A DNA stretch of 64,000 bases. Origin: Pratylenchus scribneri. Taxonomy: Eukaryota; Nematoda; Chromadorea; Rhabditida; Pratylenchidae. The position numbers and the translations under genes are program-made. The notes below the pieces were generated by a model that searched no databases, had not been told where the DNA came from, and saw only the letters and a list, made by a program, of their open reading frames with translations. Where the stretch lies: positions 620,001-684,000 of the forward strand of contig JAQSEB010000042.1 of assembly GCA_030063045.1 (NCBI GenBank), read 5' to 3'. Position 1 is the first letter of the stretch, and every line of letters begins with the position of its first letter. Below, piece after piece: positions 15,614-63,864 of the stretch.

Positions 15614-15639
15614 CAGTAAAATATAAAAGATGATTAATT

Positions 15640-27807: not shown

Positions 27808-28450
27808 ATGAAGGAAATTCTATTTATTTTAATTATTTTTATACAAATTTTCGAAAATACGGTTACAGGGAAAGGCGGAGGTGAACCATCACAAAGCAAG
27901 GATAAAAGACCAGTGGAAATAATAGAATTGAGTTCTGATTCCGAAACTAATTCACCAAATACGGATGAGGAATATGAAAATACGACAATTCCCGGAGATG
28001 GAAGAAATAAACAATCCAAAAGAAAAGGGAAAAAACCACTAATAGATTTGAGTTCCAATTCCAGTCAAAATTCACCAAATACGGAAGGGGAAGAAAATAT
28101 GGAAATGAAAAGGAATCCATCAGCGGCAATGCGTCCAGATGAATATTTTAATTGGCTTGTAGAATTTGATCAACATTCATCAAATCTAATCAATTTTGGG
28201 CACAATCCAGTTGGAGGTTGGTTTAATTTATTATTTTAGATACATATTTTATTGGCTTAAAAGAAATGAATATTTTTTAATAAATAAATCAAATTTCAAC
28301 AGGAATTAAAATTGGCAGAGAAGATGGTCAGGAAAATCCACCCAAAAAAACTCAAATTCAGCCAAGAACCAAAAAGCATCGAAATTGATGATAAAAATTA
28401 CATTGAAATTGAAACGAATCCTACAAATTTTAAACATTTTGTTCAGCAAT
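27808..28450 (+). pseudogene. Family B locus B1, 5' half with frameshift
   Basis: E1 (27808-28216) starts four bases after a TTTTTTTAG acceptor. M-K-E-I-L-F-I-L-I-I-F-I is a signal peptide; the tail is acidic and contains the repeated unit L-S-S-(D/N)-S..N-S-P-N-T-(D/E) twice. E2 (28303-28450) opens G-I-K-I-G-R-E-D-G-Q-E-N-P-P-K-K. A run of seven A (six in B8) then shifts the frame to an early stop. Removing one A would restore family reading, so it may be a sequencing slip. No E3 or E4 is found before B2. If E2 reads past its donor it ends 12 codons later, so a short protein is conceivable. Confidence 0.6.
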
Positions 28451-30976
28451 GTAAATTAAAAATGGGGATTAGTGTAAAATGAGATTTCATTTTTATAAAT
28501 ATGGCCATTCTGGTAACAGGAATGATGAATTTAATAGCTAATAAAAAAGTTGGATCTTAATTTTTGCAGTATAATTCCCATTCACTTTGCAACTTACCCA
28601 AGATTTATAATATTTTGGGATAAATCGATAATTTATTCAGGAATTGATTTCAGGGTTTTTATGGGATATTCTGAATATATAATATGAAAATTTCAATGAG
28701 GTAGGGACAGAATGACCCAATTGCCACGATAAATTTTTGCATAAAAAATTTTATTAAAATTATAAATTTTTATTTTTATTTTACAATTAATATAAATATT
28801 TGTAAAAATTTTTGAAATAAATTATCATTATCAATCTGCTGTATTTTCAGAATTGAATAGTCAATCAATATCCGTATTTATTAGCCATAAAACTATGGCC
28901 ATTTGTATACATCAAAAGTTTGCCAAACTTTTCTCCTTAAAAAAGTTTGACAAATTTTGTTTGCCAAATATTTGTTGAGAGTGTGAATATTTTTTTTTTT
29001 AAATTTTGTTCAAACAGAGTGTATACTTTCGTTTTCTTCTTATAAAAAACATAAATAATAGTCATCTATCTGCACTGCAGTCACATATAACAGCACAATG
29101 CGTAAGAGCTCGGTTCATGGAAGTTGTGGGTTCGAATTTCGAACCGCAGCAGCGGCAAAAGTTTTTAGATAATAGAGAAGTAAATAATATGAAGAAATAG
29201 TGTCCTAAAATCACCAAACACCAAATATTTTACAAAATTTTGGACAAACAAATTTCAGTTTCGATTAAATAAGTATACATTGTGCAAAAAATGTTCGGCA
29301 AATAAGTTGTCAAACAAAAGTTTGCCAAATAAATTTAACCAAATAAGTATGCATTTGGCCTATAAAAAGCAGCAGTTTAGAAAAATCGATTTTCCAAATA
29401 TGTTAATTTTTAAAATTTGTTTAATTAATAAATTTATCGGGAATTATTGGACGAATTGGCTAATTAGAAATTATGGCCAAAAAAGTTTCAACTTCCATAT
29501 AAATTTACCATTTAAGTTAATTTTACCAAAACTTTATGTCAAATTAAGTTAAATTAGTCAATCTTGGGCTCAAAATTTTCATCATACTATGTAGAATTCA
29601 ATGATATAAAAATGTTTTCGATTACTTTTAAATTAAACAATGTTAATTACAAATTTAATGAAAATTGACTGGTCGGCATAAACCACAAATAATTTATGGC
29701 TGATTTTCATACCAAATATGGGAATGGGATGAGGGAAGGAAGGATAGAGTATTTGATTTAGATTTGATGAGGTTGGGCAGAATTTTTGATCGAGAGGTGG
29801 CATTGATTAATTTGTGATCATTTTAATAACAATATTTTGATTAATTAACATTTTAATTAGTAAATATTTTAACTTAATTCTTTTACCATTGAATTTCAAA
29901 TGATTTTTCGAACATTTTGAGCCCAAGATTGATAAATTTAACTTAATTGGCGACAAAATTATAGTAAAAAACTATAATTTACCAATTTTGTGAATTTTGC
30001 CATAATTTTGTGGCCAATAAAAATAAATTAATCATTCTTGAGCTCTAAATGTTCGTCAAATTGAGTAGAATCCAATGGTAGAAAAATTATTTTGATTATT
30101 TTAATAGTTGAAAAAATATGATTTCAAATTATAAACAAAGGTCGGCATCATAAACCACAAAAATGCCCATAGGGAGTGTGAAGAGATGGGCATATTGGGC
30201 AATGGACAAATAATATATGCTGGGTGAGTTAACAAGGAGTGGGATTTGTTTTTATTTAAAATCACAAGATATTGAATAATTGGGCCCAACAGACCATTTC
30301 AGACCGCGAAATTTTGCCCAATTTTTCATTAAACAGAAATTTTAGTTAATTTTATATATTTTTCGAATAAATTAATTAAATTTTCAATTATGACCAAATA
30401 ATTGTATTTGTTGCAGTTAATATTGGATATTAGCAAATTACGGAATTAGCTAATCGTCTGGCTTATTTAATTTTATAAATCTCGGCTTCCAAGCAACCCA
30501 GAGAGCGGAAAATAGGCTCATTCGACTCGGCATGGTCGATTTATTATATGAAATTTTAATTTCAGACAATCTCGCCTCCTACATATTACCCCTAGTCTTA
30601 ACTCTTAACCCAGGAGTGGGAAGATGGGCATTTTGGGCTAAGGAAATGGAAATGATTTTATTTAATAAAATCATAAGATATTGAATACATACATATATAT
30701 TGATTGAACGATGGGCATTCAGATAATCGAATCTGTAAATTGAGCCCAATTTTTGATTCAGCTAAAATTTTTCTGTTAATTTTTTTATATTATTTTCAAA
30801 AAAATTGGCTGGATTTTCATTTATAGTCGAATTTTTTTCCTAAATTCAAATCGACAATAAAAAAATTTTGGGTTATAAAATTGACTAATAAATTTACTTG
30901 TCTTTGAAATTTTCCAAATCAATATTTTACAATTTCGATATATTTTCAATTTTTTAATTTTTCCATTTTAGAAGAA
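28451..30976. repeat. B1-B2 spacer with foldback and segmental duplication
   Basis: From about 29576 to 30430 the DNA is duplicated at 37975-40015 (minus a later insertion). A long stretch, including 30101-30289, shows no difference that I can see. It contains the family B foldback 29885-30078. The ORFs here are therefore spacer copies. The earlier part (28500-29570) is AT-rich with no gene apparent. Confidence 0.7.
29885..30078. repeat. Family B intergenic foldback, copy 1
   Basis: Left arm ACCATTGAATTT..CGAACATTTTGAGCCCAAGATTGAT and right arm ATCATTCTTGAGCTCTAAATGTTCG..GAATCCAATGGT are inverted to each other over about 65 bases. Equivalents lie at 35941-36121, 39479-39672, 48125-48320, 51302-51497 and 60042-60663 (split by an insertion). 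Confidence 0.7.
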
Positions 30977-33900
30977 ATGAAAAATATTCTATTTATTTTA
31001 GTTATTTTTATTAACATTTTTGAAAATATGAATGCTGTGAAAAAAGGAGGTGAAGGTGAACCATCGCAAAAGAGGGGCAAAATACCAGCCGAAAAAGAAA
31101 TAGTAGAATTGAGTTCCGGGACAAATTCGCCAAATACGGATGGCGAAGAAAATGCCAGAAAGATAGAGCCAGCAGTAGATTCCAATTCCGAATTTGAAAA
31201 ATGGGCAAATGATTTTTTTGAAACTGTACAAGCGCCTTTGCGGATAAATCCAGGCAATTTTGTACAAAATTCTCCGAATGAAATATTCAATCCAGCAGCG
31301 GGGGGATCGCAGGCAAAATCATTAGCAGAAGGTTGGGATCAGGGATGGGTTCGATTTTCGATTTAATTCATTTCAGTCCGAAATTTTACGACCGAATTGT
31401 TGTTTTTCGAATTCCGAATAATTTTTGACCCTCTTAAATTTTGTTTTTTTTTTCTTTCAGAAAAAAAAAACAATAATAATATAATATATATATAATGACT
31501 TTCGGCACAAATTTCTTTTAAATATTTAAGCAAAAGTTACTTTTTCATTTGAATTTTCTCTTTGAACTTATCTTATGATTTATGAATATGAACTAATGAG
31601 AATTTTGTTCATTTTGCCCAATAATAAAAATTTTAATGAAATTTTTTATTTTGGTCATTTTTGGGGCTGAAATATCGATTTTCGATTTTAATAATGGATA
31701 ATATTTAATTTGTCGAAAAAATTATTTGAAAAAGTCCAAAAAAGTATAGAAAATGTCGAAAGTTTATAACGGTTTAATGGTTTTTCCTAGACCGCCAAAT
31801 CCTATCCCAATCGATAGATCTCGACAAGACGCATCGTTTGGTATATATATTTTGTCATGGTTTGATTAAAAGTATCAATTCAAAACTAATAAAACTATGA
31901 CAAATTAAAATTATATACAATTTAATGCATTTTGACGAGTTCTATCGAATGGATGGTACTTGTGCAGTTTGTATCCTCTATTTTGGAAAGTGCCTGGTCC
32001 CCCCTATGGTTTGTCATAATTCGGGTTAGGGTCAATCAGGGTTGGATTAGGGATATGGTGGGATAAGAATCATCTTACGTTTATCCTAAACCCAAGCCCT
32101 AACCAAAACCCTGAAACCATAGGGGGGACCAAGCACTTGCCAAAAAAGAGGATACAAACTGCACAAGTACCTGGATGGATATATGGTTTGAATAGAACAA
32201 ACCACTAAACCGTTATAATCTTTTCGTTTTCAATATTATATTTGACAATTTAAATATTTCCCTTAAAATTATTTTCTAATCGATCCATCACTGCTCTTTA
32301 AGAAAATATTATAATTGAGAAATCAGAATAAATTATAATTATAGCATTAAAGAAAATTAAAGCTTTTTTTAAATATTTTTATTATCAATGTTCACCATCT
32401 CGCTTTAAAGGAAAAGGGAGTCAGGCGACAAATAATTCATCCAAACAACAATCCAAAATCATCAAGAAAAAGAAACCAATAATAAAAGTGCATGCAAAAC
32501 CAGCAGAATTCGAAAGCCTTGTTCAAAATTGTATATGATTTTTAGGGAAAAAATATATTACTCCAAATCTTTATTGAATTTAGCCCATAAAAAACGATAT
32601 TTTTGATAAAAAAATGGCGAAAATATTTTTTTTAAAGACGATTTGTTATATCAGAGGGATGTAATGGATTCAGTAGTAAAATTTAAAAAATCCATTAATT
32701 ATCTAGAATTTGGCTTGGACTTTGGAATATTCAGTCTAAAAAATATAAAAGTTTTTTAAATAAATTCGATTTGTTTTCCATTATCCACCGCATGTTCTCC
32801 TTCGTTTTGTAGGAGAATTGTCCGAATATTGGGGAAATGGATGACCGATTTCATCAGGGAATCTTATTAAATATGAGAAAGAAAATCTTAGAGGGGTTTT
32901 TTCGGAGTCAATATTTACGTAATTATCTGAGGTTAGATCGTTATTTTAGAGAAATCTCCCCGAGTGCCAGTCTCTGTAATTTCAATATTTGATTAATTTT
33001 TTGTTGATATTATTTATTTTTCTCTTCATTTTTTAATTTTTAATCTTATTTATCAGTGACTGGAAAAGATGCAACATTCGAAAAAATCCAAGAAATAGTT
33101 AAACAACAAAATTTGAAAATTAATAAGGAAAATATGGATACGGATAAAAATAGAAAAAGGAAGGATAAAAGACCAATCACAATATTTGATTTGGAATCGG
33201 GACAAAATTCACCAAATACGGATGAAGAAGAAAATACCGAAATGAATCCAGTGGCAATCCGCCCAGATGAATATTTGAATTGGCCTGTAGGATTTGATCA
33301 ACATCAATCAAATCCAAGTAATTTTGTGCCACATCAGCCAAAGGAGAAATTTGATCAAACCACTCATCAGAGGCAGACGCAGACAGCAGCAAGAGGTTTT
33401 GAAATTAATTTAATTGATCAGAGTTCAAATATAATTTAATATTAAATGAAATTATAAATTTAAAATAATATTTTAATTTTTAGAATTAAATTTGGGCGTA
33501 TCAAGCCAATCGGCAAATATTTTCAAAAAATCCAAACCAATAAAGGCCAAATATATTTCGCCACCAAAATACAATCAAACCAATGCTGCAAACTTCAGAG
33601 ACGCTTATCAACAAGTTCCTGCTGGGCATCCTCAAATGTCGCCACAATTTCCTGCTGATCCGAATTGGCAAATAACGTTGGAAACAAATTTCCCACATCC
33701 AAATCAAAATATGCCACAGTCCGGTAATTTGAATTTATTTTAATTTGTGAACCCAAAATTCACAATTAGTTAATGTGGTATCCCTTATTAGACTCTTCAT
33801 TTATTTCTTTCCAATATATTCCAATTACTCTTTCCAAATATAAGAAAGGCCAAATTCTTTATTGAGAGGATATTAAAGAATATTTTGGTCAGCAAATGAG

Positions 33901-34963
33901 TTAGGGAATTATTAAGGGAATAATGAATAAAAAGTGAATGCCTAATGGGGAAATTGGATTCATTAAATAGGGGCACAATATGGGCGGAATTAATGAGGGA
34001 ATTAGGGTGGATCGAGAGTATCAATTTCTTGCCAAGATAGTTCACCACAGTTAAGTTGTGCGTGCCTTGGATTTAAGAATTCCCACCGAGATTTTAAGCC
34101 TTACCCTCACTGAAAATAGCCATCAATGAAAATTCATTGCCATAAAACCAGCTAATAAGTCTATTGATTTAATCTTAACTTCATAAATTTTGCACTAGCA
34201 TTCAGAAATTGTCCTATGCCTATACTTTTAACAGCAAAGGCACAACTTTTCACTTCAAAAAGTCCAAAAACCATGCGAGGACACTTCCTAAATATACAAA
34301 GGACGGTGCAAATGTGGGCGCTTCCTAAAATGGTGCAAATGTGCATTTTTTCGACTATAATAAATCATAAACCGGTTTTAGACCCTACAAACCTTATACC
34401 ATTTTGAAGATCTCGTCAAGACGCATCGAATGGTATATAAATTGTAATGGTTTGATTAAAATTAAAGAGTTTAAAACCAAAGAATGGAAAAATGGTTTGA
34501 ACGGTTTAATACTGACTTAACCATGCCATATATACCTTTCAATTCGTCTTAACGATATCTACAAAATGGTATAAGGTTTGTAGGGTCTAAAACCGGTTTA
34601 TGATTTATTATAATCGAAAATATGCACATTTGCACCATTTTAGGAAGCGCCCACATTTGCACCGTTTAGGAATTGTCCTAGCACCTCCAAAAACTATTAA
34701 TAAATTTTATTTTAGTGAACGAATCACGTCATCAAATAATAAATGAGCTCGTCGATATGCGACTTGAAGTTCATGATATGAAAGGGGAATGTGAACAAAT
34801 AGAAGAGAAAATTAAAAATTTACAAAATAAAGGGAAAGCAGAACAAAACACTAAAGAAATTGAAATGCTATCGGCAAGAAAGAAGGAAATTAGAAAACGA
34901 ATGGACGATTTGGATGTGAAGATTGCAAATTTGAATGAGGAATTAAAACGGCAAAAAAATTAA
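30977..34963 (+). CDS. Family B secreted protein B2, chimeric exons, 433 aa
   Basis: Five exons, all joined in phase 1: 30977-31331, 32411-32530, 33057-33395, 33484-33723 and 34716-34963. E1 gives a signal peptide (M-K-N-I-L-F-I-L-V-I-F-I-N-I-F) after a CATTTTAG acceptor. E2 is the Lys-rich linker ending L-V-Q-N. The third exon starts like E3 (L-T-G-K-D-A) but then runs into an E1-type body (R-K-D-K-R-P, Q-N-S-P-N-T-D-E-E-E-N, I-R-P-D-E-Y). The fourth starts as E2 (L-N-L-G-V-S-S) and passes without an intron into the E3 tail (P-A-G-H-P-Q, F-P-H-P-N-Q-N-M). The last is a charged coiled coil ending L-K-R-Q-K-N. The protein is predicted secreted, largely disordered, with a helical C-terminus; function unknown. 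Confidence 0.75.
31757..32219. repeat. Foldback FB1, copy 2, with a second inverted repeat nested inside
   Basis: The outer arms are TATAACGGTTTAATGGTTT..GATCTCGACAAGACGCATCG and CAAACCACTAAACCGTTATA. Into its centre is set a second inverted repeat (31952-32172) whose arms of about 60 bases begin GGTACTTGTGCAGTTTGTAT and include GGTCCCCCCTATGGTTT. It lies in B2 intron 1. Confidence 0.7.
34200..34690. repeat. Foldback FB1, copy 3, with extended arms
   Basis: Arms of about 170 bases: GGTGCAAATGTGGGCGCTTCCTAAAATGGTGCAAATGTGCA on the left, then AATAAATCATAAACCGGTTTTAGACCC, both returning inverted at 34540-34680. Core GATCTCGTCAAGACGCATCG as in the other copies. It lies in the last intron of B2. 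A worn relative of its outer part is at 61663-61960. Confidence 0.75.
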
Positions 34964-36262: not shown

Positions 36263-37371
36263 TTACTGGAATGAATCCATCAGTCAATGATAATCAAGAA
36301 TTTGTTCATTTCCCTCATCAGCAACATAGACAAAAACAACAACATTTGAGAAAATATTCTGCTACTGGAATTGGCCAAGGATCATCTTCGTCGGCTGCTG
36401 CTGGAGTCCCTGTTCCCGGCCACAATCATTATCAACATCAAATTAATCTTAATTATTATCAACATTTAATTAATGGGCGTCATCAATTTGTTGCTGATCC
36501 AAATGAAACCGCACGCTTTTCTCAAGCAATAAACTCATACGATAAACAAAGTATAAAATAAAAAAATATTAAATTAAAATGCCAAATAGATTATATAAAT
36601 TATTCTTTGTCTGTGGTGTTAAACTTCCATAATTTGATTATTGTTTTTGTCCTATTTAATATTTATGTATTAGGTTAAACAAATGCATTCGATGGTTTAA
36701 TAGCATTAATTTTAATCATATCACTTTAAGAGATATTTGATTTAGAAAGTTGATTAATTTAGTGAAAAGGGCAAAATAAAAATTATGATAAATAGTAGTG
36801 GGAAAAATAGTGACAAAAAAATTGCAAAAAATGAAAAAATTTACCAAAAATTTTATCAAAAACATTTTTAAAGAAAGGGGCCTCAAAAAGTTTGACCTAA
36901 ATGAATTAAAGTGGTAAAATTTTGATGAAAAATGGTTTAAAATTTTAAAAATTTTAAGTCAAGAAATTTCTCAAGTCATCAAAGATTTTGCTTATAAAAT
37001 CTTTTAAGATTTTTTTTAATATTTATTCAATTTTAAATATTCATAAAAAATTGAATTAAAAATAAAATTCCCACTTTTAAAAAAAATTTTTAGAGTTGGG
37101 AGAATTTCTCTTAAATATAGATGGAAATTTGAATGAATTAAAAGAAAAATTATATAAATTGCAATTGCGGATCAATTCTTTTAGCATTGCTGAAAGAAAT
37201 GCGAATAATTTGATGCTGAAAAATTTACAACAGAAACACAGAATGAACTTGGAATATGAAAAAACAGTTTTGATGGAGAACTGTTTTAAAATGGAAGCTC
37301 AAAAACAACAAATTATACAGAAAATTCTAAATATTGAAGCAGAAGTGAGGACTGGAAAAGGACACCATTAA
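36263..37371 (+). pseudogene. Family B locus B3, orphan E3-E4
   Basis: Two phase-compatible exons are present: 36263-36550 and 37094-37371. The first opens T-G-M-N-P-S-V-N-D-N-Q-E, is Gln/His-rich and has I-G-Q-G-S-S-S-S-A-A-A-G. The second is a coiled coil (E-G/L-N-E-L-K-E-K-L-Y-K-L) ending T-G-K-G-H-H. No signal-peptide exon or E2 precedes them. They may be a headless remnant, or alternative terminal exons of B2, whose exon 4 donor is also phase 1. Transcript data would separate these. Confidence 0.6.
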
Positions 37372-38151: not shown

Positions 38152-38159
38152 GTATTTAG

Positions 38160-39339: not shown

Positions 39340-39347
39340 GTATTTAG

Positions 39348-40642: not shown

Positions 40643-42111
40643 ATGAAACAAATTCTATTAATTTTAATTATTTTTATATACATTTTTGAAAATATGGCTA
40701 CTGGCAAAGATGGAGTAGGTGAACCATCCAAAAGAAAAGAAGGGTATTCGCCAAATGAAGCGGAAAGTAAAAATAGAGAAATGAATCCGACAAAAAATTT
40801 CGAGGTAGTTGCGCCAGATACCTATATTTTCAATTCATTTGATCAAAATCGAAATGAGAAACGGAAAGGGAATAATTCAAGCAATTCTGTGCACCATCGA
40901 CCAGTGACCAGATCGCAAATAGCTAAAAGAGAAAGTAGCAATTTTGTGCCAAAACGGTCAATGACAAGATCGCAGACAGCAAAAGGAGGAGGTTGGAGTT
41001 AATTTTTATTTAATAGTCAAATAGCATAAAAAAAGAAAATTTGAATTAATTTCCAGGATATAATTTTGTCGAATTAGGCCGTTCGGAAATTCAAAAGCCG
41101 AAATCAAAAAAAGCAAAAACATTTCATCAGCGATTTCCACCACTGGAACAACGAATGGGAGAACAGCATTCTGCCCCAGAAATAGGCCAAGGGTCATCTG
41201 TGCCGGCTGGAATCCTAGGGCCTAATCAACAAATTCAATGGCCTCAACAATTGCCGAAATTTGCAACTAATCCGAATTTCCTTGATCCTAATCAAGAGTC
41301 AAGACTATTTGCTGAAGCTATAAATCCTTTTAATTATGAAGGTATTAATTAATATTTGTTTTTAAAAAAAATATTTAAAAAGTGTCATATAAAAACGATT
41401 AAATAATTTTTACTATACAAGCAATAACTCTTAGAAATAATGAAAAATTTGAATATTATTTACTTTAATTTTGGCATTTGCGCATTTGAAGCTAAAATAC
41501 CATCAATTTTTTTAATCTAAAATATACATATTTTATCAGTTTTGGCTGATAATTAGTAATGACAGTAATAACATATAAAAAAAAATACAAAAAGGACACA
41601 AATGGGCCCTACCAAATGACATATTTATTTTTAACATTTTGTACTAAAATCTGTTTAGGTATTAAAGTGACGAAAACCTGTCACGGTTTGCTACGAGAAA
41701 TAATTTTTTAATACATCCAGACAGAACAAAAAAAGAGTTATTTTTTGACATTTTCGTATTTTTTTTAAATAATCGTCAAAATTTAAAATTTCTACTTTTT
41801 AATTATTTTTAGAGGAGAGAAAAACTCTCAAAGAAATTGAAGAAAATTTGGTCAAATTATACGAAACAAAAGAAAAATTAAAAAATTTGAAAAACAAGAT
41901 TGATAAACATGACAAAGTTGTAACAGAAAATGAGCATAATTTGGGTGAAGTGGTGATTAAAGAATTGGAGAAAACTAAAAAGGATTTTGCCAATAAAAAG
42001 GAGGAAGTAGAACAACAAATTGAGGAAATGGAAAAACAAAAAGAGCAAATTACACAGAAAATTCAAGAGAAAGCTCGTGAAAAATTGAAAACTGGAAAAG
42101 GGAATCATTAA
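40643..42111 (+). CDS. Family B secreted protein B4, fused E2-E3, 309 aa
   Basis: Three exons in phase 1: 40643-40988, 41057-41341 and 41813-42111. The signal peptide M-K-Q-I-L-L-I-L-I-I-F-I-Y-I-F is followed by M-A-T-G-K-D-G and a basic/Ser-rich tail with two related units (R-P-V-T-R-S-Q-I-A-K; R-S-M-T-R-S-Q-T-A-K). The second exon begins as an E2 linker and, without the usual intron, becomes E3-like (I-G-Q-G-S-S-V-P-A-G, N-Q-Q-I-Q-W-P-Q-Q-L-P). The third is the longest coiled coil of the set, almost purely K/E/N/Q with regular leucines and isoleucines, ending T-G-K-G-N-H. A secreted protein that can oligomerise by its C-terminus is the inference. Confidence 0.75.
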
Positions 42112-43593: not shown

Positions 43594-44574
43594 ATGAAAA
43601 AAATTCTATTTATTTTAATTATTTTTATAAACATTTTTGAAAATATGGCTGCTGGTGGTAATGGTAAAGATGTACAAAGGAAGGATAAAACATAAAAGAC
43701 CAAAAATTGATTTGGAATCGGGGCTAAATTTGTCAAATATAGCAGAAGATGAGGAAAGAAATAATATTGGGGCAAGTGGAATTCTGGATTGGGAGAAAAT
43801 ACATGAGAATGCCCTTATACCAAGACGGTCAAATGCAAATGAAGGGTTTGATAAATCTGCTCAATTAGAGGATCTAAACTATATTTTGCCCCCTCCGCCA
43901 ATGGTAAGATTTGAGCATCAAGCAACGCCATCGCAGAAGACAGCAGCAAAAGGTTGTTTTGTGACTAATTACCTTAAGAATTCAATTTAAAATTAGCATT
44001 AAATTGATCTTATACAAAATTTTAAAAATTAATGTTTATATTTTTATATAATGGATTTAGGTTATCATTCTGATTTTTGTAGAACAGAGCTTATTAATTT
44101 TATCCATAATAAAAATTTTTTTTATTAATTCACAAATTTTCCGTGAATTGGCCTTATATCAACATAATTAGGACTTTATTATTAGTTAAAGGTGTAGGAG
44201 GAAATACTCAACTCTTTTTCGGGTTTTCTAAATTTATCGCGTAAAAATATAAATTTAAAGGACTTGTGCTTTTAAAAAGGATACAAACTAATTCATTTTT
44301 TTTTCAACTAGCTAGTAAGATTTTCTCTTTTAATATTAATTAAGTATGCGTTTTCTCATTTTAATTAATTTCTAATGAAATTAATCATGTTTTCTAACTA
44401 TCATATTACTTCTATTAAAATCCCTCCTTCTATTAGAAGTCCCTTTCTATTAGTATCCTATTCTAGAGGGTCTTTGAAATTTAATAATCTCGAGTATATT
44501 AATAGAAGTAATGCGGTATTTTATACTAATTTTAATAAAAAAAAATCGAATTTTCCAATAAAATTTAAGCAAAT

Positions 44575-44945: not shown

Positions 44946-44948
44946 TAT

Positions 44949-46857: not shown

Positions 46858-46992
46858 ATACGAACCCAGACGGAGATAGCTCGATTGAAACTTGAAATAA
46901 GGAAAGTGATAGAAGAAATTGAGATTTGGGAACAACAAAAACACAAATACCAAAGATTGATACAAATTGTGCCAGGAAAAGAGCAATATTAA

Positions 46993-48774: not shown

Positions 48775-50451
48775 ATGAAAACAATTTTGTTTATTTTAAT
48801 TGTTTTTATTAACATTTTTGAATATTTGGCTACTGGCAAAGATGGACAAAAGAAGGATAAAACAATAATAGATTGGGAGAAATTAGAGCTCGATGCACGT
48901 TTCCCAAGTTGGTCAAATGCACATGAAGAATTTGATAAATCTCCGCTATTGGAAAATCCAAGCAATTTTGTGCCACATCAGCCAAAGGGGAAATTAGATC
49001 AAACAAATCAGACTCAGACAACAGCAAGAGGTTTGCATTAATTTCTTTGATTAGAATTGAATTATAATTAGCATTAAATTAAATTAAAAATTAAAATAAT
49101 ATATAATTTTAATATATTAATTTTAGAATTAAATTTGGGCGTATCTAGCCACTCGGCAAGTATTTCCAAAAAGTTTAACCCACCAAAGGTCATCCACTAT
49201 TTGTCACCAACGTATGTGGAAACTAATGCTGCAGGCTTCAAAGATGTTATCCAAAATTGTAAAAATTAATGCTTTAATTTTATTTAATAAATTTAAGCGA
49301 ATATTCTAATTTTTGCGAAATGATGATGAGAATAATTTAGTAGTTGATATTAGTAAACTTCACCCATAATAAAAATTATTGTTTAATTTATGCATAAATT
49401 TTAAATGAATTGGCCTTATCGAAAACTGTACGAAAGGATTGACGAGAGGTTTTAATCCAAGGCTTTATTAATTAGATTTATACTTATTAGATTAGAGCTG
49501 AGAATAAAACTCTGTTCTTTTTTATGATTTTCTAAATTTTTAGCGTTAATTTAAATTTAAAATTTAAAGTGACCGGAAAGGATGCCCCAGTCAATGAAAA
49601 TGAAGAAAAACATTTGGAAAAACAACGAAATGCCTCACATGCACCAGTCATTCAGCCTATTTTACAACTAAATTCTGGCACATCGATGATAGGACAAAAT
49701 ATTGGGCCCAGTCAACATAATTCTGATTCCGTAACTGCCGAAAATCGAGAAAATGTTCATCATGAAAGTCCATCGCAAATTCATCAATCGAAAATTGCAA
49801 AAATAGTGCAACATTTCCCTGGACAACATAAATTAAAACAACAAAATTTTGGACAGTATTCTTCTCCTGGAATAGGCCAAGAATCATCATCGTCAGCTGG
49901 AGTTCACGGTCACGGGTATTATCAACAAATTCCTGCTGGGCATCCTCAAATATTGCCACAATTTCCTGCTGATCCGAATTGGCAAATAACGTTGGAAACA
50001 AATTTCCCACATCCAAATCAAAATATGTCACAGTCCGGTAATTTTAATTAATTTTAATTTGTGAACACAAAATTCACAAATTAGAAGAACAAACAATGAA
50101 ACATTTTGGGTGAATTTTTCAAATATTTATCAAAAATATCCATTAAAAATAAAATTTCTAATTTATGAAATAATTTTAGAGGTGGAAAAATTGTTCAAAA
50201 CAATTAAAGAAAATTTGGATGAATTATATGAAAAATATCACAGTTTGAAAAACGAATTATTTAATCTTTTCTATTATGAAATAAACCACGCGAATATTAT
50301 GAATGGAGAAGAAAAGAAAAAATTGGAAGAAAAAAGAACTAAATTGGAAAATGAAAAAAAAGCGGTAGAGGAGCAAATTCCGATAATGGCAAATAAAAAG
50401 CAAGTATACGAAAAATTTATTCAATTGGTGGCTGGAAAAGAGCAACATTAA
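48775..50451 (+). CDS. Family B secreted protein B6, canonical four exons, 375 aa
   Basis: Exons 48775-49030, 49127-49258, 49570-50037 and 50180-50451, every intron phase 1. E1: signal peptide M-K-T-I-L-F-I-L-I-V-F-I-N-I-F and a short tail with N-F-V-P-H-Q-P-K-G-K-L-D-Q-T, a piece also found in B2 exon 3. E2: L-N-L-G-V-S-S-H-S-A to D-V-I-Q-N. E3 is the longest of the family: L-T-G-K-D-A-P-V-N, a unique Ser/Asn/His-rich insert, I-G-Q-E-S-S-S-S-A-G and a tail (P-A-G-H-P-Q..F-P-H-P-N-Q-N-M-S-Q-S) nearly identical to B2 exon 4. E4: coiled coil E-N-L-D-E-L-Y-E-K-Y..A-G-K-E-Q-H. Start chosen because a TCATTTTAG acceptor ends five bases upstream. Confidence 0.78.
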
Positions 50452-51965: not shown

Positions 51966-54156
51966 ATGAAAAGAATTCTATTTATTTTAATTATTTTTGC
52001 CAACATTTTTTACAATATGGCTACTGGTAAAGATGGAGGAGGTGAACCATCACAAAGGAAGGGTAAAAGACCATTATTAGAAAATGAATCGCCACCGGCT
52101 GATCAATCCCGTCGAACAAAGGGAAAATTTACTGCTGATGGTGAACTTTCGAAGGCAGCAGCCGGAGGTTATTGTTAATTCATATGCTAAGCCAATTAAA
52201 TTATAGATTTAATTAAAAATTTAAAAAAGTGAAATATATAAAATTAATTTTAAAGGATTTATTAATTTCGATGAAACAGAAGAGCCAACAGAAATTATAT
52301 CATCCCAAAAGAAACCCAAACAACAAAGAATTTTCCGTCAAAAGACCACAGAAATTATTAAAACAAATCCAGCTGATTACAAAGGTCTTGTTTAATAATG
52401 TATAAAATAAATTAATACTTTTTAAAATAAATTTAGAGATGCGAAAAGCAATGAAAAAAATTGATGAAAATTTGTATAAATTGGACAAAAAATATGATAG
52501 GTTGGAAAAGGAATTAAGAAATATTCACAAATATGAAATACAAAACGCGGATTATTTGACTGAAGAGGAGCAGAAAAGAATTGATGAAAATAAAAATAAT
52601 TTGAACATTGAAAAAACAGAGCTAGAGAAGCAAATTGCGGATATGGAAAAGGAAAGACAACAAATTATAGAGCAAATTCAGGCAAATGATACGATTGCGA
52701 TAGGCCAAGATTCGTCATCGTTGGGTGAGTCAATGATGGGCAATAGGCATCAATGGCTTCGATTTCTTAAAAAATCTCCAAAAATTCAGGGGGAAATTTC
52801 TAGAAATCGAAAAATTCAAGGGGTTAAAAATTTCTAGAAATCGAAAATCTATATTTCGGTGCCAAAAATGACCGAAAATCGACATCGAATAAAAAAAATC
52901 AAAAATCGAAGCCATCCCTGTTAGACTTCAAACAAATTAATTGGCAAATTTCAATTTTTAAAGAGACAGGAAATTATGCACCAGTCGATGATAATCAGAA
53001 AATTGTTCGGCGGCAAAATCCATTACAAACTCGCAATCCTCATCAGCAACAAATGCAAAGCTCAAATTCATTCCATCATTACCTTCAAGAGCAAGAACAA
53101 AGATTGGGACAAGAAATTGCTGCTAGAATAGACCAAGGATCATCTGCATCTGCTTTTGGAATTGTAGGACATCATCAACAAATTCAAGGGCATCATCAAT
53201 TGCCACAATTTTCTGTTGATCAGAAACAGCACATGAAGGGGAAAACAAATTTGTCACATCCGAGTCAAAATATGTCACATTCTGGTAAGTAAAATTAATT
53301 CTAATTTATGCTTTTATTTTATTACAAAACATTAAAATATTTTTGACAATTTTGCTTTTTATCTATCTAACGCACAAGGCACAACTATGGATACAAAATT
53401 TATTAAAGTAAATTCATGAATGCATTGCTGATTCGCTTTCTCTTCCTCCTCTCGCTCTCGATGATGGCAAATTTAAGCCAGACTTTTGCGCATCTACCCA
53501 ATGTCGATATTTGCGACCGAAATTTATGCATCTAAAAATGAATCACAACCTAAAGATAAAGATATACACACCAAACCTACACCTAATAAGAAACCTACAA
53601 AACCAAAAGGCCTATACTAATTTTAGATTTCTCCGCCATGTCACTCACTTCGCGACATTTATCCGTTCAATCCCATGCTCCGAACCCCTAACTCTAAACT
53701 CCTAGTGTTGGCCTTTTGGGTTGTAGATATTTTAGCTATTGGAGGTAGATCTCTAGGATGTGGTTCATTTTAAATTTTTGGATGCATAAATGTCGGTGCG
53801 CAAATTTCAGAATACCAAATTTAATTGACAGAGTTGCCTATCACTCTGCCCCCCCCCCCACCAACTCTCTCTCCCCCACCCCAAGTCCTCTATTACCTTG
53901 AAGTTTTGTATTTTTTAAATATTTATCCATTAAATAATCAAATTTATACTTTTAAGCTTTGAATAAATTAAACAAAAAATATGTTAGGTTGGAAAATGAA
54001 TTAAAAAATATTCACATATATGAAAGTCAAAACGCGGATTATTTGACCGAAGGGGAGAAGAAAAAAATTGATGAAAATAAAGCAGAGATACAGGCGAAAA
54101 TTGCGATAATGGCAAATGAAAAACAACAAATGATGGCTGGAAAAAAGCAGCATTAA
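51966..54156 (+). CDS. Family B secreted protein B7 with two coiled-coil exons, 379 aa
   Basis: Exons 51966-52167, 52256-52384, 52437-52724, 52964-53284 and 53957-54156, all phase 1. Signal peptide M-K-R-I-L-F-I-L-I-I-F-A-N-I-F, then M-A-T-G-K-D-G-G-G-E-P-S-Q. The usual E2 end is spoilt: the Q codon before the normal donor is TAA. A GT eleven bases earlier (AAAG/GTCTTG) is in phase and avoids the stop. The third exon is a coiled coil that runs on into an E3-like I-G-Q-D-S-S-S-L-G instead of ending. A true E3 follows (E-T-G-N-Y-A-P-V-D-D-N-Q, D-Q-G-S-S-A-S-A). A second, shorter coiled coil ends A-G-K-K-Q-H. The two coils share N-I-H-x-Y-E-x-Q-N-A-D-Y-L-T-E, so one arose by duplication of the other. 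Confidence 0.7.
52747..52920. mobile_element. Worn MITE in B7 intron 3
   Basis: Right end AAAAATCGAAGCCATCCCTG mirrors a degraded left CAATGGCTTCGATTTCT. Internal words GACATCGAAT and ATTTCGGTGCC recur in the element at 58307. No target duplication is seen, so the left limit is approximate. Confidence 0.5.
53505..53810. repeat. Foldback element in B7 intron 4
   Basis: GCGACCGAAATTTATGCATCTAAAAATGAA (53513-53542) returns as TTAAATTTTTGGATGCATAAATGTCGGTGCGCA (53770-53803). The inside includes the less AT-rich text CACCAAACCTACACC. A C-run and CCAACTCTCTCTCCCCC follow at 53850-53880. Confidence 0.55.
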
Positions 54157-56819: not shown

Positions 56820-59353
56820 ATGAAAAAAATTCTATTTATTTTAATTATTTTTATAAATAATTTTGAAAATATGGCTGCTGGTGGAGATGAAGGTGAGCCA
56901 TCACAAAGGAAGGATAAAAGGCCATTAGAAATAATTGATTTGGATTCCGATTCGTCAAATACAGATCGGGAAGAAAATGCCGGAATAAATCAAGCAGCAA
57001 TTCGGCCTGCAGATGCACATTTTAATTCATTAACAAATACACTTGGAGGAGAATTTGGCCAACATCAGAGAGGTTTAATTTATTTTTGAGAAATATTAAC
57101 TGTGAAAGAAATTTAATTTTTTTCTAAATAATTTAATAAATTAATCAAATTTTCAAAAGGAATTAAAATTGGTGGACAAAGAGGCCAAGCAAATCCATCC
57201 AAAAAACTCAAATCTTCAGAACCAAAACCAACCATTCAACTGAGGCCTGTAAATTTCAGAGATGTTGTTCAAAAATGTAATTTAATTAAATTAATTGATT
57301 ATTTCGATTTTTCTTTTTTGTTAAATTTTAAAATGTAAAGTGGCCGGAACATCTTCTCCTGCTGATTTAAAAGATATAAATTTGGGACACAGTGGAATTC
57401 AACAACAACCACGATTATACCCGGTAAACCTTACATAAATGACGAAATATTTGTGCCTAATAACATTGAAAAAAATTTTTAATGCAGATAAAAATTTCCT
57501 ATTAATTTATTAATCAATTTATTTTAGATACCAATAGAGCCTAAAGATAAATTCATAGTTAATCATCAGTCGCAACCGCAACATAATCTACCCGCGGCAG
57601 TTTCATCTATGATGGTACAAAATATTGGACAAAGTCGACAAAAACATTCATCATCGGCAGCTATTAAATTAATCAACTTTTCAAAAGAAATTAAAATAGG
57701 TGGAAAAAGTGACCAAACAAATCCATCCAAAAAACTGGAATTCTCTGAACCAAAAATAATTTATTATGATTCACCAAAACACTTTGATGTGGAACCTGGA
57801 AATTTCAAAACTGTTGTTCAAAAATGTAATTTTTTTAATCAAATTTTTTGATTTTAATCATTGAATTAATTCACATTAGATTTTTGTGTTTTTTTTCATA
57901 ATTTTCATTTTATTTAAAATATAAATTAAAATTTTAGTGACTGGAAAGAATGCACCGGTCAATGATAATCAAGAAATTGCTGCTCATCATCCAAATCCAT
58001 TACAAAATTTCAATCCTCAATCTCAATGGGGAGGAAAAATTCATCAGGGACAATTACAAAATCAACAACAATATTTTGGACATTCTGCTGCTGCTGGAAT
58101 AGACCAAGGATCATCGTCATCGGCTACTGGAATTCAAGGACATCCTCAATTTTCACGATTTGCCCCAGGATTGAATCAACAAATGTCTGCGACGAATCAT
58201 CCAAATGAAAGAAAAATTGGTGATTTATTAAGGGAAGAAAATGACAAGCTTAAATTTAGGATGCTTTTGGTAATATTTTTCTAATTTCTGCACTGTCAGT
58301 CCAGTGCAGGGATATTTTCGATTTTCAAAAAAAAATTATCAAAATTGAAAATCGAAATTTTGGAGGGTCCATTAAATTTTCCAAATAGAAGAACGAAATT
58401 TCGAACCCAAAGTGATCGAAATTCGACATCGAATCAAAAAAAATTTCATTTGAATTTTTAAAATTTTTATTTTGGAGTAAAAATTAAAAAATTTGATAGT
58501 CAAAAAAAGGTCATAAGTAAGATGTTCAAAGTTAAAAATTGTAACGAAAAAGTGACTTTTCCTTAAATATTTGAAAGAAAATTGTGCCAAAAATCATTTA
58601 AATATTCTATATAATTTTAATTTGCGATTTTTAAATTTTTCTAAATCGAAATTTCAGTGGGGAAGGGATGGAAAATTTTCCGAAATCGAAATTTTGGTCT
58701 TAAATTAAAATGACAGAAAATCGACATCGAATCGAAAAAATCGAAAATTGAAGCAATCCCTAGTCTAGTAATTTAAAAGTCTAAATTTTGAAATAGAAAA
58801 ATTCGAAAGCTATTTCCGTGGTTAAAGTTTAAGATAAGGAAAAATTGGGAAAACTGCATACAATTAGAAAAATTAATCTTCTTAAATTGTAAATGGAATT
58901 TACATATTATTTAAAATATATATTATTTTTATATGCTGAAATTAAGAAATATTTTGTTTGAGAAATAATCCCTTTCTAACTTTCTATACGAATGATTAAA
59001 AAATTAAATAGACTTTTAAGCTAATCTGTTATTTAATTCTATTTACCTAAAATTATATAAAATAAAAAATTAATTTTTAAGAAATCAATGAAGCGATTGG
59101 AGAAATTGATCATAAATTGGATAAATTAATCGTGGAAGATCACAATTTGGGATTAAAATTGGATAGAATTAACCATGATTTACATGTATATCACATCAAA
59201 TTAGTAAAATTGAGCGATGAAGAAGTCCAACAAATGGAGGCACGAAAGACTGAATTGAACCAACAAAAAATGTTATTGGTCAGTCAAATTGCGCAATTGC
59301 AATTTCAAAAAGAACATTTACTGAAGCAAATTCATGTAAATATCCCAAAATGA
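56820..59353 (+). CDS. Family B secreted protein B8, six exons with an exonised intron end, 434 aa
   Basis: Exons 56820-57072, 57160-57276, 57341-57423, 57528-57825, 57938-58219 and 59082-59353. E1: signal peptide M-K-K-I-L-F-I-L-I-I-F-I-N-N-F, then G-E-P-S-Q-R-K-D-K-R-P and an acidic tail. E2: G-I-K-I-G-G-Q-R-G-Q-A-N-P-S-K-K. A short exon (L-A-G-T-S-S-P-A-D) is joined in phase 0 to the fourth. That exon begins E3-like (M-M-V-Q-N-I-G-Q-S..S-S-S-A-A) and then reads I-K-L-I-N-F-S-K, a translation of what is intron in its siblings, before a second E2 (E-I-K-I-G-G-K-S to V-V-Q-K). A normal E3 (L-T-G-K-N-A-P-V-N-D-N-Q-E, I-D-Q-G-S-S-S-S-A) and a coiled coil ending H-V-N-I-P-K follow. The E3 donor is taken at 58220 by comparison with B9. 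Confidence 0.72.
58307..58762. mobile_element. hAT-like MITE in the last intron of B8, 456 bp
   Basis: Starts CAGGGATATTTTCGATTTT and ends AAAATTGAAGCAATCCCTA. Flanks GTCCAGTG and GTCTAGTA agree at six of eight. Both halves carry GACATCGAATC. The same intron of B9 reads GTCCAGTGATTTAAAAAG without the insert (62454-62472), an empty site. Confidence 0.8.
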
Positions 59354-59422
59354 AGTGACATTTAAATTGGAAAAAAAACAAATATTTTTACTATTGGATC
59401 AAATTATATTCACATCACATGG

Positions 59423-60629: not shown

Positions 60630-60637
60630 CTCAAAAT

Positions 60638-61122
60638 GTTCGCCTAATAGCGTAGAATTCAGTGATATAAGAATTGATTAAAAAATATTTGATAATGAAA
60701 AAATGATTTCAAAATAAATGGAATTAACTGGTTCGGCATAAACCATAAATTATTTACGGCTGATTTATTGGGCCGGTGAATGGATTGGCTGATGGCACTG
60801 ATTGAAAGATGTACGCTTGATTTGTATAGGGTTTCGGGGATGATTGGCCATTATAAATGTAAATTGGGGGAGGGGGTGGAGTGAATACATTTGTGAATGA
60901 ACGGATGATTTTATCGACAAAATCTCGTGTTTTCGGGCACTGAATGCCATTGCTTTGGGGCATTAAAAATAGTGAGAGGGAGCGCAGAATTATGGCTTCA
61001 ATTTTAATTTCAATATTAACTGAATCAAAAATATTTTGAATTTAAAAATTTTCAATAGTTATTTTCACATTTTTAAAAATTTTATTAAATTATATTCATC
61101 ATAATTTGCGCATTTTAGAAAA
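60638..61122. other. B9 upstream spacer
   Basis: Contains TCGGCATAAACCATAAATTATTTACGGCTGATT, shared with 63360-63390 before B10 and, in part, with 63865-63890. The B9 acceptor is GCATTTTAG ending 61118. No gene. Confidence 0.55.
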
Positions 61123-62838
61123 ATGAAAACAATTTTATTTATTTTAATTATTTTTACAAACATTTTTGAAAATATGGCTACTGGCAAAGATGAAGGAGGT
61201 GAACCATCACAAAGGAAGGATAAAAGACCAATCATAGATTTGAGTTCCGATTCAGATTCTGATTCCGAATCAAATTCGTCAAATACGGAAGGGAAAGGAA
61301 ATATAGGAGGAAGGAATCCACCGGTAATACATCGAGATGTCCATTTTGATTCATTAGCAAATGTACATGGAGGAAGATTTGGGCAACATCAAGGAGGTTG
61401 GATTTACTTTCGAGACCTATAAAAATTTTCAAATAAATAATTTACCAAATTAATCAATTTTCAACAGGAATTAAAATTGGTAGAGAAAGTGGTCAAGCAA
61501 ATCCTGCCAAAAAACACAAATCCTCTGATCCAAAAATCATCTATATTGAGGATGATAAACCCATTATTGTGGACCCTGCCGAATTCAAAAGCTTTGTTCA
61601 ACAAAGTAATTTTTAACTATATTTATGATTCTAATCATTGTTGAAATAATTTAAATAGAAATAACGGTGCTAGTACAATTGCTAAACAATGCAAATGTGG
61701 GCGATTCATAAAATGATGCAAATAATTTAAATTTAAAATCATGGCAATAAGAAAATTTAAAGTTAAATCAGAATTTAAAAACACAGAATAAAATCAGAAT
61801 AAAATCAGAATTAAAAATAAGAATATAATCAGAACTAAAATCAGAATCAGAATAAAATCGGAATAAACAGAATAAAAATCAGAATAAAGAAAAAGAATTT
61901 CACATTTGCAGCGTTTAGAAACTGCCCACATTCGCACCGTTTTAGCACCTCCCTTTGCTCTTTAGGAATTGTCCTCGGACGAATATAATATTGAATTAAT
62001 CCTCCTTTTTTGTGTTCTCTTTTGTTATTTTTCTAATTTTTTAAATTTTATTTAAAGAGACTGGAATGAATGCACCAATCAATGATAATCAGCAAATTGT
62101 TCAACATCATCAAAATCCATTACAAATTGTCAAATCTATACCGCAAAATGCAAATTCAATGCATCATTACCTTCAACAATTAGAACAAAAATTGGGATTG
62201 AGGGAACAATTTTCACCAAAAATTGGCCAAGGATCATCTTCGTCTGCATTTGGAGTTGTAGGGCATCAAATTCATGGGCACTCGCGATTTGCTCCTGGTC
62301 CAGGCCCAAATCAACAAATGTCTGCGGTGAATCGCCCAAATGATACAGAAAATGGTGAAAAAATTATGGGAAGAAAAATGGCAACTTAAATTTAGAATGA
62401 TTTTCTTTTTTGCTTATTTTTAAATAATATTTTTTCCAATTTCTGCACGGTCTGTCCAGTGATTTAAAAAGTTAAAATTTTTAAAAATTCGCAGTTATTT
62501 CCGGGGTTAAAGTTTAAAAAAGGAGAGAAAATTGGCAATTTGTTTAAATTTTTTTTCAAAAAAATTCAACTATTGAATAAATATAAATTTTTTTAGTGAA
62601 TGAATCACGCCAACAACAATTTAATACCCTAATTGATAAGCGACGTGAAGCTAAAGAATTGAAAAGTGTATTTGAAAATATAATTAAGAAAATTGGAACA
62701 TTACCAGATAAAGGGATGGAACAAAACAATCAGGAAATTGAAATGCTACGGGCTTCAAAGAACGAAATTGGAAAACTCATGGATAAATTAAATGTGGAAA
62801 TTACAACATTGGAAAATGAATTAAAACGCAGAAATTAG
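61123..62838 (+). CDS. Family B secreted protein B9, canonical four exons, 316 aa
   Basis: Exons 61123-61396, 61468-61605, 62058-62354 and 62597-62838, all introns phase 1. E1: signal peptide M-K-T-I-L-F-I-L-I-I-F-T-N-I-F, M-A-T-G-K-D-E-G-G-E-P-S-Q-R-K-D-K-R-P and a stretched D-S-D-S-D-S-E-S-N-S-S-N-T run. E2: G-I-K-I-G-R-E-S-G-Q-A-N to F-V-Q-Q. E3: K-T-G-M-N-A-P-I-N-D-N-Q-Q, I-G-Q-G-S-S-S-S-A-F-G and a Pro/Gln tail. E4: coiled coil starting V-N-E-S-R-Q-Q and ending E-N-E-L-K-R-R-N, closest to the B2 end. It is the clearest reference for the ancestral layout. Predicted to be secreted, mostly disordered with a helical C-terminus; function unknown. Confidence 0.78.
61663..61960. repeat. Worn foldback in B9 intron 2 with AATCAGAATAAA tandem repeats
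   Basis: Outer words GTGCTAGTACAATTGCTAAAC and ATGCAAATGTGGGC return inverted as GCCCACATTCGCACCGTTTTAGCAC. The centre holds repeated AATCAGAATAAAATCAGAAT. It matches the outer arms of the copy at 34200. Confidence 0.6.
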
Positions 62839-63753
62839 CTATCGAAAAAAATTTTTAAAACAGATGTCAAAATCCAATTCTTTTTATATTTTATTTCATT
62901 TCATTCTCCATCCTTCCTGTCAATTTATATATTTTTGGAATTATCTTTTAGATCATTTTATAGATTTTTTCTTTTAACAATTCGGAAATTGATTTTTAAA
63001 CCTCTGATAAATTCCCTATCAAATTTCTAGAGCATATCAATGGTCAAGGTACATTGTTTATAGAGTAGAAGACATGAAATGGCAGTCCCTAGGTCAAGAT
63101 CAAGACATTATAGACCCGATTTATTCATCATTTTATTTAATTGTCGTCCGCGAATAGGGCCCAAAAATTTCAATTTAAGTAAAAAATTTAATTAATTAGG
63201 TAAATTTTGATAAATTAGTGCTAGGTGTTAGATTAATATAAATTAATCAATCTTGGGCTCAAAATGTTTGTCAAATTGAGTAGAATCCAATGGTAAAAGA
63301 ATTTTTTAAAAATATTTGATAATCAAAAAAGTTAGTTTCCAATTTAATGAAATTGACTGGTCGGCATAAACCATAAATTATTTACAGCTGATCGGAAAGA
63401 TGGGTGAATTGGGCAATGGTATCGAATGAAACGTGAACGGATGATTTGTACGGTTGATTTGTATAGGGTTTTGGCGGATTGATTGGCCATTGTAAATGTA
63501 AATTGGATGTAAGGGCATTTTTGGATGAACGGATGATTTATCGGCAAAATCTTGCGTTTATTTCGGACCCTGAATGCCATTGCTTTGGGGCATTTTAAAA
63601 ATAGGGAGAGATGTGATTCTAATTTGCAATTTTCATTCATATATTATTTATTTGAATCAATATAATTTGCATTTATAAATTATTTTGATTCAATTTTATT
63701 ATAAGCATTTCAAAATTTTTTCTAAATAAAATTAATCAAATTTTTTAGAAAAA
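62839..63753. other. Spacer before B10
   Basis: AT-rich with the half repeat CAATCTTGGGCTCAAAATGTTTG at 63249 and TGGTCGGCATAAACCATAAATTATTTACAGC at 63358. No gene. Confidence 0.55.
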
Positions 63754-63864
63754 ATGAAAAAAATTCTAATTGTTTTAATTATAATATTTATAAACATTAT
63801 GGAAATTGGACCGAAACGAAAAAAATTGAAAATCGATTCCATCCCAGTCCCAGGTCAGAATTAA
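63754..63864 (+). pseudogene. Family B locus B10, signal-peptide stub
   Basis: After a TTTTTTAG acceptor the start M-K-K-I-L-I-V-L-I-I-I-F-I-N-I-M matches family B. Within 20 codons the text turns into AAAATCGATTCCATCCCA, the typical right end of the CAGGGATGG MITE family, and reaches a stop (36 codons). Directly after it the spacer phrase CTATAAATAATTTACAGTCGATTTATTGG of an upstream region starts again. The rest of the gene has been lost through a MITE-associated rearrangement. Confidence 0.65.

What the first reader, a model, noticed from the sequence alone, without database searches (positions are those of the whole stretch)
27808..63864. Family B: a secreted gene array built from phase-1 modules that are shuffled, fused and duplicated
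Across the family B loci nearly all reconstructed introns are phase 1, so E2, E3 and internal coil exons are symmetric and can move without a frame change. The copies show the outcome: canonical E1-E2-E3-E4 (B6, B9), fusions (B2, B4), repeated coil exons (B7), repeated E2 (B8) and headless or tailless copies (B1, B3, B10). A signal peptide on every start exon makes these candidate secreted diversity-generating proteins. I know of no description of this family; that it is an effector system is inference.
Basis: partly seen in the sequence, partly recalled or inferred. Interest (0 to 1): 0.9.

Follow-up and report, generated by a model that had tools for sequence, protein, structure and literature searches.

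The report
Nematode secreted genes swapping exon modules
A nematode genome carries clustered copies of a fast-changing gene family whose predicted exons have been swapped, fused and lost between copies; the proteins are predicted to be secreted and would likely act in the nucleus of host cells, which makes this a possible way for a parasite to renew its protein arsenal.

Summary
Ten family B copies lie at 27.8-63.9 kb; the array continues beyond the window and recurs on four other contigs. Of 87 scored exon boundaries, 84 have a phase-1 splice site. Exons read as coding: 25 of 29 listed exon indels between homoeologous copies are multiples of three, and dN/dS is 0.24-0.92 in 13 pairs. Module swapping is supported by ancestry, not only by architecture: W61123 resembles W56820 in E1 and E3 (z about 20) but not in E4 (z 0.2); its E4 matches W30977 (z 19), and the change falls in intron 3. 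Other changes are deletions: an in-frame fusion at 33605 and a headless copy at 36262. An acceptor-like site precedes 25 of 31 start codons, against 3.5% of ATGAA sites. New here: 15 of 31 start exons carry a SUMO-interacting-like core, 0.2 expected on shuffling, and a related start-exon family carries an EAR-type DLNxxP motif in 9 of 10 distinct loci read. Effector function, SUMO binding and expression are untested. A root-knot gland promoter motif is not enriched.

The parts
27808..28236 (+). B1 E1: start exon with two tandem SIM-like blocks (IIELSSD, LIDLSSN)
28303..28388 (+). B1 E2 stub; no E3 or E4 hit after it before B2
   Evidence: phase-1 acceptor
30977..31366 (+). B2 E1 (open frame to 31366)
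   Evidence: (95% to C70, indels of 3)
33044..33439 (+). B2 open frame with E3-type start (VTGKDA) followed by an E1-like KRKDKRP..FDLESG block
33477..33743 (+). B2 fused exon: E2 joined in frame to the 3' part of an E3; junction at 33605
34716..34963 (+). B2 E4, related to B9 E4
36263..36561 (+). B3 headless copy: E3; similarity to the C70 gene breaks in intron 2 near 36130
37081..37371 (+). B3 E4 (coil)
40643..41002 (+). B4 E1
41050..41352 (+). B4 fused E2/E3-like exon
41803..42111 (+). B4 E4 (coil)
43594..43990 (+). B5 E1, first frame closes after 33 residues; similarity goes on in another frame
46263..46543 (+). B5 E3
48775..49041 (+). B6 E1
49127..49255 (+). B6 E2
49570..50051 (+). B6 E3 (type d); 3' end not fixed
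50200..50451 (+). B6 E4 (coil); start of exon not fixed
51966..52178 (+). B7 E1, class without SIM-like block
52406..52837 (+). B7 first coil exon
52964..53335 (+). B7 E3
53956..54156 (+). B7 second coil exon
56820..57072 (+). B8 E1 (SIM-like IIDLDSD)
57160..57276 (+). B8 first E2
57528..57825 (+). B8 open frame holding the second E2 (hit from 57690)
57938..58217 (+). B8 E3 (3' end inferred)
59082..59353 (+). B8 E4, predicted as two long helices
61123..61396 (+). B9 E1 (SIM-like IIDLSSDSDSDSE)
61468..61605 (+). B9 E2 (KKxK-type, NLS-like)
62058..62354 (+). B9 E3 (3' end inferred)
62461..62583 (+). zone in intron 3 where similarity passes from the W56820 type to the W30977 type
62597..62838 (+). 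B9 E4, predicted as two long helices, unrelated in sequence to B8 E4
63754..63864 (+). B10 start stub with KRKK / KKLK, then stop

Best explanation
This is a tandem, multi-contig nematode gene family whose predicted exon modules have been swapped between copies, in one mapped case within an intron, and it is predicted to encode secreted proteins that likely act as effectors in the nucleus of host cells. Shown here: the modules, a shared phase at five boundary types, coding constraint, discordant module ancestry with one breakpoint zone in intron 3, and deletions that fuse or behead copies. Inferred: E1 supplies secretion plus, in about half the copies, a SUMO-binding motif; E2 supplies a nuclear localisation signal; E3 is a flexible Gln/Ser-rich linker; E4 is an exchangeable helical part that sets the partner. 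Ectopic recombination between tandem and homoeologous copies, helped by one intron phase and dispersed repeats, would change tails and linkers without loss of frame, while selection keeps start exon and frame.
For: Phase: 84 of 87. Discordance: W61123/W56820 E1 z 20.6, E3 z 20.0, E4 z 0.2; W61123/W30977 E1 6.9, E3 0.8, E4 19.0; C124_453/W56820 E1 29.9, E3 2.5; C124_453/W48775 E1 6.8, E3 16.2 (matrices). Breakpoint: W61123 matches W56820 to 62461 and W30977 from 62583 on. The C124:460517 relative is collinear through this zone in one 1000-base match, so the swap predates that split. Coding: dN/dS 0.24-0.92 in 13 pairs, 7 of them 0.33-0.65; pooled E1 0.53, E2 0.83, E2b 1.40 (23 changes), E3 0.47, E4 0.72. 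Start: TTT(T)AG within 12 nt of ATG in 25 of 31 E1s against 65 of 1851 ATGAA; SL1 sequence found 302 times with up to one mismatch, reversed control 0. SIM-like core 15 of 31, shuffled mean 0.19, 0 of 44 in E2-E4. Both E4 types tested are predicted as two long helices, best-model pLDDT 91.6 and 94.4. Related start-exon family: DLNxxP in 9 of 10.
Against: No transcript, protein or localisation evidence. Mel-DOG motif not enriched. Many splice sites are weak (AAAG acceptors, GTTTAA donors) and no splice model was trained on this genome. Several copies are incomplete or frame-broken, so part of the array is decay. The SIM-like core is absent in 16 of 31 E1s, and the strict SIM-a pattern also turns up in 5 of 14 E4 coils and 2 of 16 E2s, so that pattern alone is not specific. 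Related sequences inflate motif counts. The 31 E1s were chosen by a hydrophobic-start pattern. The species is not identified; two recalled species-diagnostic primers gave no match.
Confidence: 0.6

Rival explanations
1. Birth and death of a fast-evolving tandem family: duplication, gene conversion and deletion make chimeras and fragments as by-products; shared phase is only common descent of one gene, and swapping has no adaptive role.
For: Headless, stub and frame-broken copies; the 33605 fusion and the 36130 break are deletions; dispersed repeat in both orientations through the array; boundary copies of one type share ancestry, so phase agreement is weak evidence.
Against: dN/dS below 1 in all 13 pairs and mostly in-frame indels keep copies coding; the W61123 chimera is kept in two homoeologous arrays, although its C124 relative has one stop in E3 and a broken frame in E4.
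Confidence: 0.3
2. Secreted proteins with a role inside the nematode (for example gland or cuticle secretions, or intracellular nuclear proteins with a misjudged hydrophobic start), not host-directed effectors.
For: Gland promoter motif not enriched; SUMO and nuclear import exist in nematodes too; no Pfam match above cut-off in 8 exons.
Against: Conserved hydrophobic start with SL-like acceptor; rapid divergence; related start-exon family with a conserved EAR-type DLNxxP motif, a class known for binding plant TOPLESS co-repressors.
Confidence: 0.15
3. The acidic IIDL block is a degenerate EAR-type repression motif (binding TOPLESS), not a SUMO-interacting motif.
For: 6 of 31 E1s read IDLN and one of these reads DLNSEP, a full DLNxxP (L015); EAR motifs are conserved in the related family.
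Against: 8 of the 15 cores read IIDLS, IIELS or IVELS, which are not EAR, with acidic residues or serines after them, as in SIMs; the EAR of the relatives lies about 25 residues further from the KR element, so the two are probably not the same site.
Confidence: 0.15

Closest known systems
HYP effectors of Globodera (PMC11228951, abstract and first part of Results read; PMC4177990, listing only)
   Same: Secreted nematode gene family with modular variation that keeps the frame.
   Different: HYP variation is allelic, at single-gene loci, in short motifs inside the middle exon; here variation was seen between tandem paralogues, at the level of whole exons, with an intron-placed breakpoint. Alleles in a population were not examined here.
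map-1 family of Meloidogyne incognita (known here only from passages in PMC4617103 and a reference title)
   Same: Root-knot nematode secreted family described as modular.
   Different: map-1 modules are short repeats of 14-15 aa (CLE-like and HVLM); I did not search for them here.
1-1 symmetric exon shuffling of extracellular proteins (recalled general knowledge)
   Same: One intron phase on both sides lets exons be added, doubled or lost in frame.
   Different: Here it acts inside one fast-evolving family and exchanges 3' tails and linkers, not folded extracellular domains.
SUMO-interacting motifs (PMC12751080, passages read)
   Same: Four-residue core with at least three hydrophobic residues next to acidic, phosphorylatable serines.
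   Different: Binding untested; loose motif with chance matches.
EAR-motif effectors that bind TOPLESS, e.g. HaRxL21, Jsi1 (PMC12886408, section 3.3 read)
   Same: DLNxxP motif in a predicted secreted protein, in the related start-exon family.
   Different: Family B itself has a full DLNxxP in only one of 31 start exons.

Membership tests
Phase-1 modular (1-1 exon) gene family | Phase-1 introns on both sides of internal modules | tested here: met
   E2: 18 of 18 acceptors and 17 of 17 donors; 84 of 87 over five boundary types. E3 donors not scored, so both sides are tested for E2 only
Phase-1 modular (1-1 exon) gene family | Modules of one copy have different histories | tested here: met
Secreted nematode effector | N-terminal signal peptide, no membrane domain | tested here: inconclusive
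   Hydrophobic MKxILFIL-type start in 31 E1s, which were chosen by such a pattern; no trained predictor run
Secreted nematode effector | Dorsal-gland promoter motif Mel-DOG (TGCMCTT) | tested here: not met
   9 of 31 against 26.6% of random 1-kb windows; 0 in forward orientation. In the source paper the motif is upstream of 27 of 46 known dorsal-gland effector loci, so its lack does not exclude an effector
Secreted nematode effector | Expression in pharyngeal glands, delivery into host | not testable with these tools
   no RNA or protein data
HYP effectors | Hyper-variable domain of short tandem motifs within one exon | tested here: not met
   Tandem repeat scan at score 80 shows no array over the exons listed in parts; some E3 exons do hold two-fold internal repeats
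HYP effectors | Variation is allelic | not testable with these tools
   one assembly only
SUMO-interacting motif protein | Hydrophobic core V/I/L plus acidic or Ser stretch | tested here: met
   core in 15 of 31 E1s; strict pattern in 6 of 31
SUMO-interacting motif protein | Binds SUMO | not testable with these tools
   needs a binding assay
Any Pfam family | Match above gathering score | tested here: not met
   0 of 8 exons reach a cut-off

The most novel reading that the evidence does not exclude
One secretion-plus-nuclear start exon heads a genome-wide nematode arsenal in which copies carry different docking motifs for host nuclear hubs (SUMO in family B, TOPLESS through DLNxxP in the related family) and exchange helical tails through phase-1 introns: a combinatorial effector system that makes new motif-tail pairings by recombination.
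Probability: 0.22. Interest if true: 0.87.

Novelty: new variant of a known kind. Interest (0 to 1): 0.62.

Why it matters
Root-knot nematodes, the likely kind of genome here, are described as adapting rapidly in spite of asexual reproduction (PMC8685519, abstract in the listing). A clustered secreted family that exchanges whole exons between copies would be a concrete source of such change, and it can be tested by comparing isolates. The SUMO-like and DLNxxP motifs give two named host targets that a simple binding test could confirm or exclude.

Tried and rejected
Database relatives: E1 of W27808 gave one hit, P0001, a 99-aa metagenome frame identical to the C70:227959 start frame; the W48775 E3 exon and the L025 exon gave none. 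I take that database to be poor in nematodes, so absence means little. Text search for three peptide strings: 0 papers. Mel-DOG: not enriched. Species: two recalled SCAR primers, 0 hits. I first took the repeat at 35874-36129 for a shared promoter because it lies 271 nt upstream of an E1 in C70; a wider search shows it in both orientations at many distances, so it is a dispersed repeat. The seed E3e was cut in a wrong frame with two stops, so its hits mark place only and the W51966 E3 rows are void. E4 of W61123 against W56820: 23% identity in the local alignment, no better than shuffled. My first pattern for the DLNxxP relatives missed most of the loci and counted two twice; replace it.
Full report
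What the window is. The window is C42:620001-684000 of a 227-Mb, 276-contig genome with G+C 0.25-0.37 per 4 kb. The nematode spliced leader SL1 (sequence recalled) occurs 302 times with up to one mismatch and its reversed control never, so this is a nematode. Root-knot nematode (Meloidogyne) is my inference from base composition and several homoeologous copies of the array; it is not proved, and two recalled species primers gave no match.

Anatomy. Four module types recur. E1 starts like MKxILFILIIFINIFENMA and continues GEPSQRKDKRP, then in many copies IIDLSSDS. E2 is about 38-52 aa, GIKIGG..NPSKKLKSSEPK. E3 starts like VTGKDAPVNDNQ and is Gln/Ser-rich, often with GIGQGSSSSA. E4 is a coil. 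Ten copies lie in the window; more lie at C42:684244, C70:225-275 kb, C124:445-466 kb, C228:3-19 kb and C180:314-323 kb, with further copies or start exons elsewhere (for example C42:735 and 768 kb, C70:147 kb, C124:507 kb, C17, C44, C147). Genome searches returned 58 E1, 16 E2 and 27 E3 hits as lower bounds at the E-values used. No exon of 8 tested reaches a Pfam cut-off.

Splice phase. For each homologous boundary I asked which phase has a GT or AG within a few bases of the site. E1 donor 12 of 13, E2 acceptor 18 of 18, E2 donor 17 of 17, E3 acceptor 27 of 29 and E4 acceptor 10 of 10 have phase 1; 11 E3 acceptors have also a phase-0 AG two bases on and one E1 donor also a phase-2 GT. These are five boundary types with shared ancestry, not 87 independent draws. 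Sites are often weak, and no model was trained on this genome. E3 donors were not scored.

Coding. In alignments of homoeologous copies, 25 of the 29 exon gaps listed are multiples of three while intron gaps are irregular (three-way alignments count a shared gap twice). The four exceptions are a 1-base gap in E4 of the 61123/C124 pair and gaps of 1, 10 and 1 in E4 of the 36262/C70 pair. dN/dS by Nei-Gojobori is 0.24-0.92 in 13 copy pairs, 7 of them between 0.33 and 0.65; pooled 0.53 for E1, 0.83 for E2, 1.40 for E2b (23 changes in all), 0.47 for E3, 0.72 for E4. The pairs overlap, so they are not independent. Most exons look weakly constrained and change fast. An acceptor-like TTT(T)AG lies within 12 nt of the start codon in 25 of 31 E1s, against 65 of 1851 ATGAA sites, as expected for trans-splicing or a short 5' intron.

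Swapping. W61123 and W56820 match in E1 (z 20.6) and E3 (z 20.0) but not in E4 (z 0.2), while W61123 and W30977 match in E4 (z 19.0) but weakly in E1 (6.9) and not in E3 (0.8). DNA similarity to W56820 runs to 62461 in intron 3, and similarity to W30977 starts at 62583, just before the E4 acceptor, and runs on past the stop. The relative at C124:460517 is collinear through the zone, so this swap is older than that pair; that relative has itself one stop in E3 and a broken E4 frame. C124:452992 shares E1 with the W56820 type (z 29.9) but has an E3 of the W48775 type (z 16.2 against 2.5); C70:248477 and C228:4244 show the same pattern in raw scores.

Deletions and mosaics. In W30977 an E2 is joined in frame to the 3' part of an E3 at 33605; from there 166 aligned bases are 95% identical to W49919-50084, while the C70 relative keeps about 850 bases there (260148 to 259300) and is 88% identical beyond. 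W36262 has no E1 or E2 hit; its C70 relative at 268317 has both, and similarity breaks in intron 2 near 36130, beside a dispersed repeat. Its E3-E4 intron is matched from end to end only by another C70 copy (275244-274398, 89%), not by the gene that matches its E3, so this copy looks mosaic too. Gene order also differs between C42 and C70.

Function. The mature E1 has a core [VIL][VIF][DE]L in 15 of 31 copies (shuffled mean 0.19, maximum 2 in 2000 rounds), the strict pattern [PILVM][ILVM]x[ILVM][DSE]3 (recalled) in 6 of 31, and W27808 has two blocks. The core is absent from 44 E2-E4 exons, though the strict pattern occurs in 5 of 14 coils and 2 of 16 E2s. [quoted passage not shown]). One class of E1 lacks this block in the alignment. 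E2 has KKxK, which I read as a nuclear localisation signal from memory. Two E4 exons with no sequence similarity are both predicted as two long helices with a short turn (single-sequence models; best pLDDT 91.6, the other four 73-81, and best 94.4, the other four 88-92), consistent with exchangeable helical hairpins; this is a prediction.

Start-exon relatives. Weaker E1 hits led to a second family; its member L025 gives 93 hits in the genome. Of the 12 best loci returned, 11 could be parsed and 10 are distinct; 9 of these 10 carry DLNxxP at one aligned position and the tenth reads FNLNELP, against a shuffled mean of 0.03. They were picked as the best hits of a query with the motif, so the share in all 93 is unknown. 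Five further start-exon relatives (L021-L024, L027) lack it. DLNxxP belongs to the EAR class that binds the plant co-repressor TOPLESS, which fungal and oomycete effectors use (PMC12886408, section 3.3). This favours a plant host, but binding is untested.

Literature. Papers seen: PMC11228951 (abstract and first part of Results), PMC12886408 (passages and one section), PMC8158474, PMC4617103, PMC8727514, PMC11239862, PMC10275998 and PMC12751080 (passages); others as search listings. Searches whose listed rows show no description of this family or of a nematode EAR-TOPLESS effector; one search listed 15 of 2,411 papers, searches listed 15 of 16 and 15 of 17. Mel-DOG was taken from PMC8158474 and tested with a negative result.

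Noticed in passing
L025, L026, L030-L041 (contigs C181, C109, C56, C16, C203, C219, C8 and others): Related secreted-start family with 93 hits in the genome; DLNxxP (EAR-type) in 9 of 10 distinct loci read.
   Followed up: partly
window 35874-36129 and many places in the arrays: Dispersed repeat of about 255 bases in both orientations, often between array genes and beside the headless copy's break.
   Followed up: partly
L001 1744-2166 and its relatives in L005 and L013: E3 exons with a two-fold internal repeat (HHYLQEIxxNL..), so some length change happens inside exons as well.
   Followed up: no
window 5361-21130: A second tandem family (frames such as MGQTPFTPLEYNDNQSPLLLVATKEEFNLFIVKKTEILAEV), no Pfam match above cut-off for the four frames tried.
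   Followed up: no
window 23336-23638 and 25671-26012, minus strand: Two short secreted-looking cysteine-rich frames with weak matches to the TIL (trypsin-inhibitor-like) domain, below cut-off.
   Followed up: partly
window 2788-3690: Frame with a weak BED zinc finger match (below cut-off); perhaps a hAT-like transposon.
   Followed up: no
P0001 (public metagenome frame, contig of 1218 bases): 99-aa frame identical to the C70:227959 start frame: the same or a sister nematode was probably sequenced in a metagenome.
   Followed up: no
L015 4244, minus strand (C228): One family B start exon reads IIDLNSEP, which fits both a SIM-like core and a full DLNxxP.
   Followed up: no
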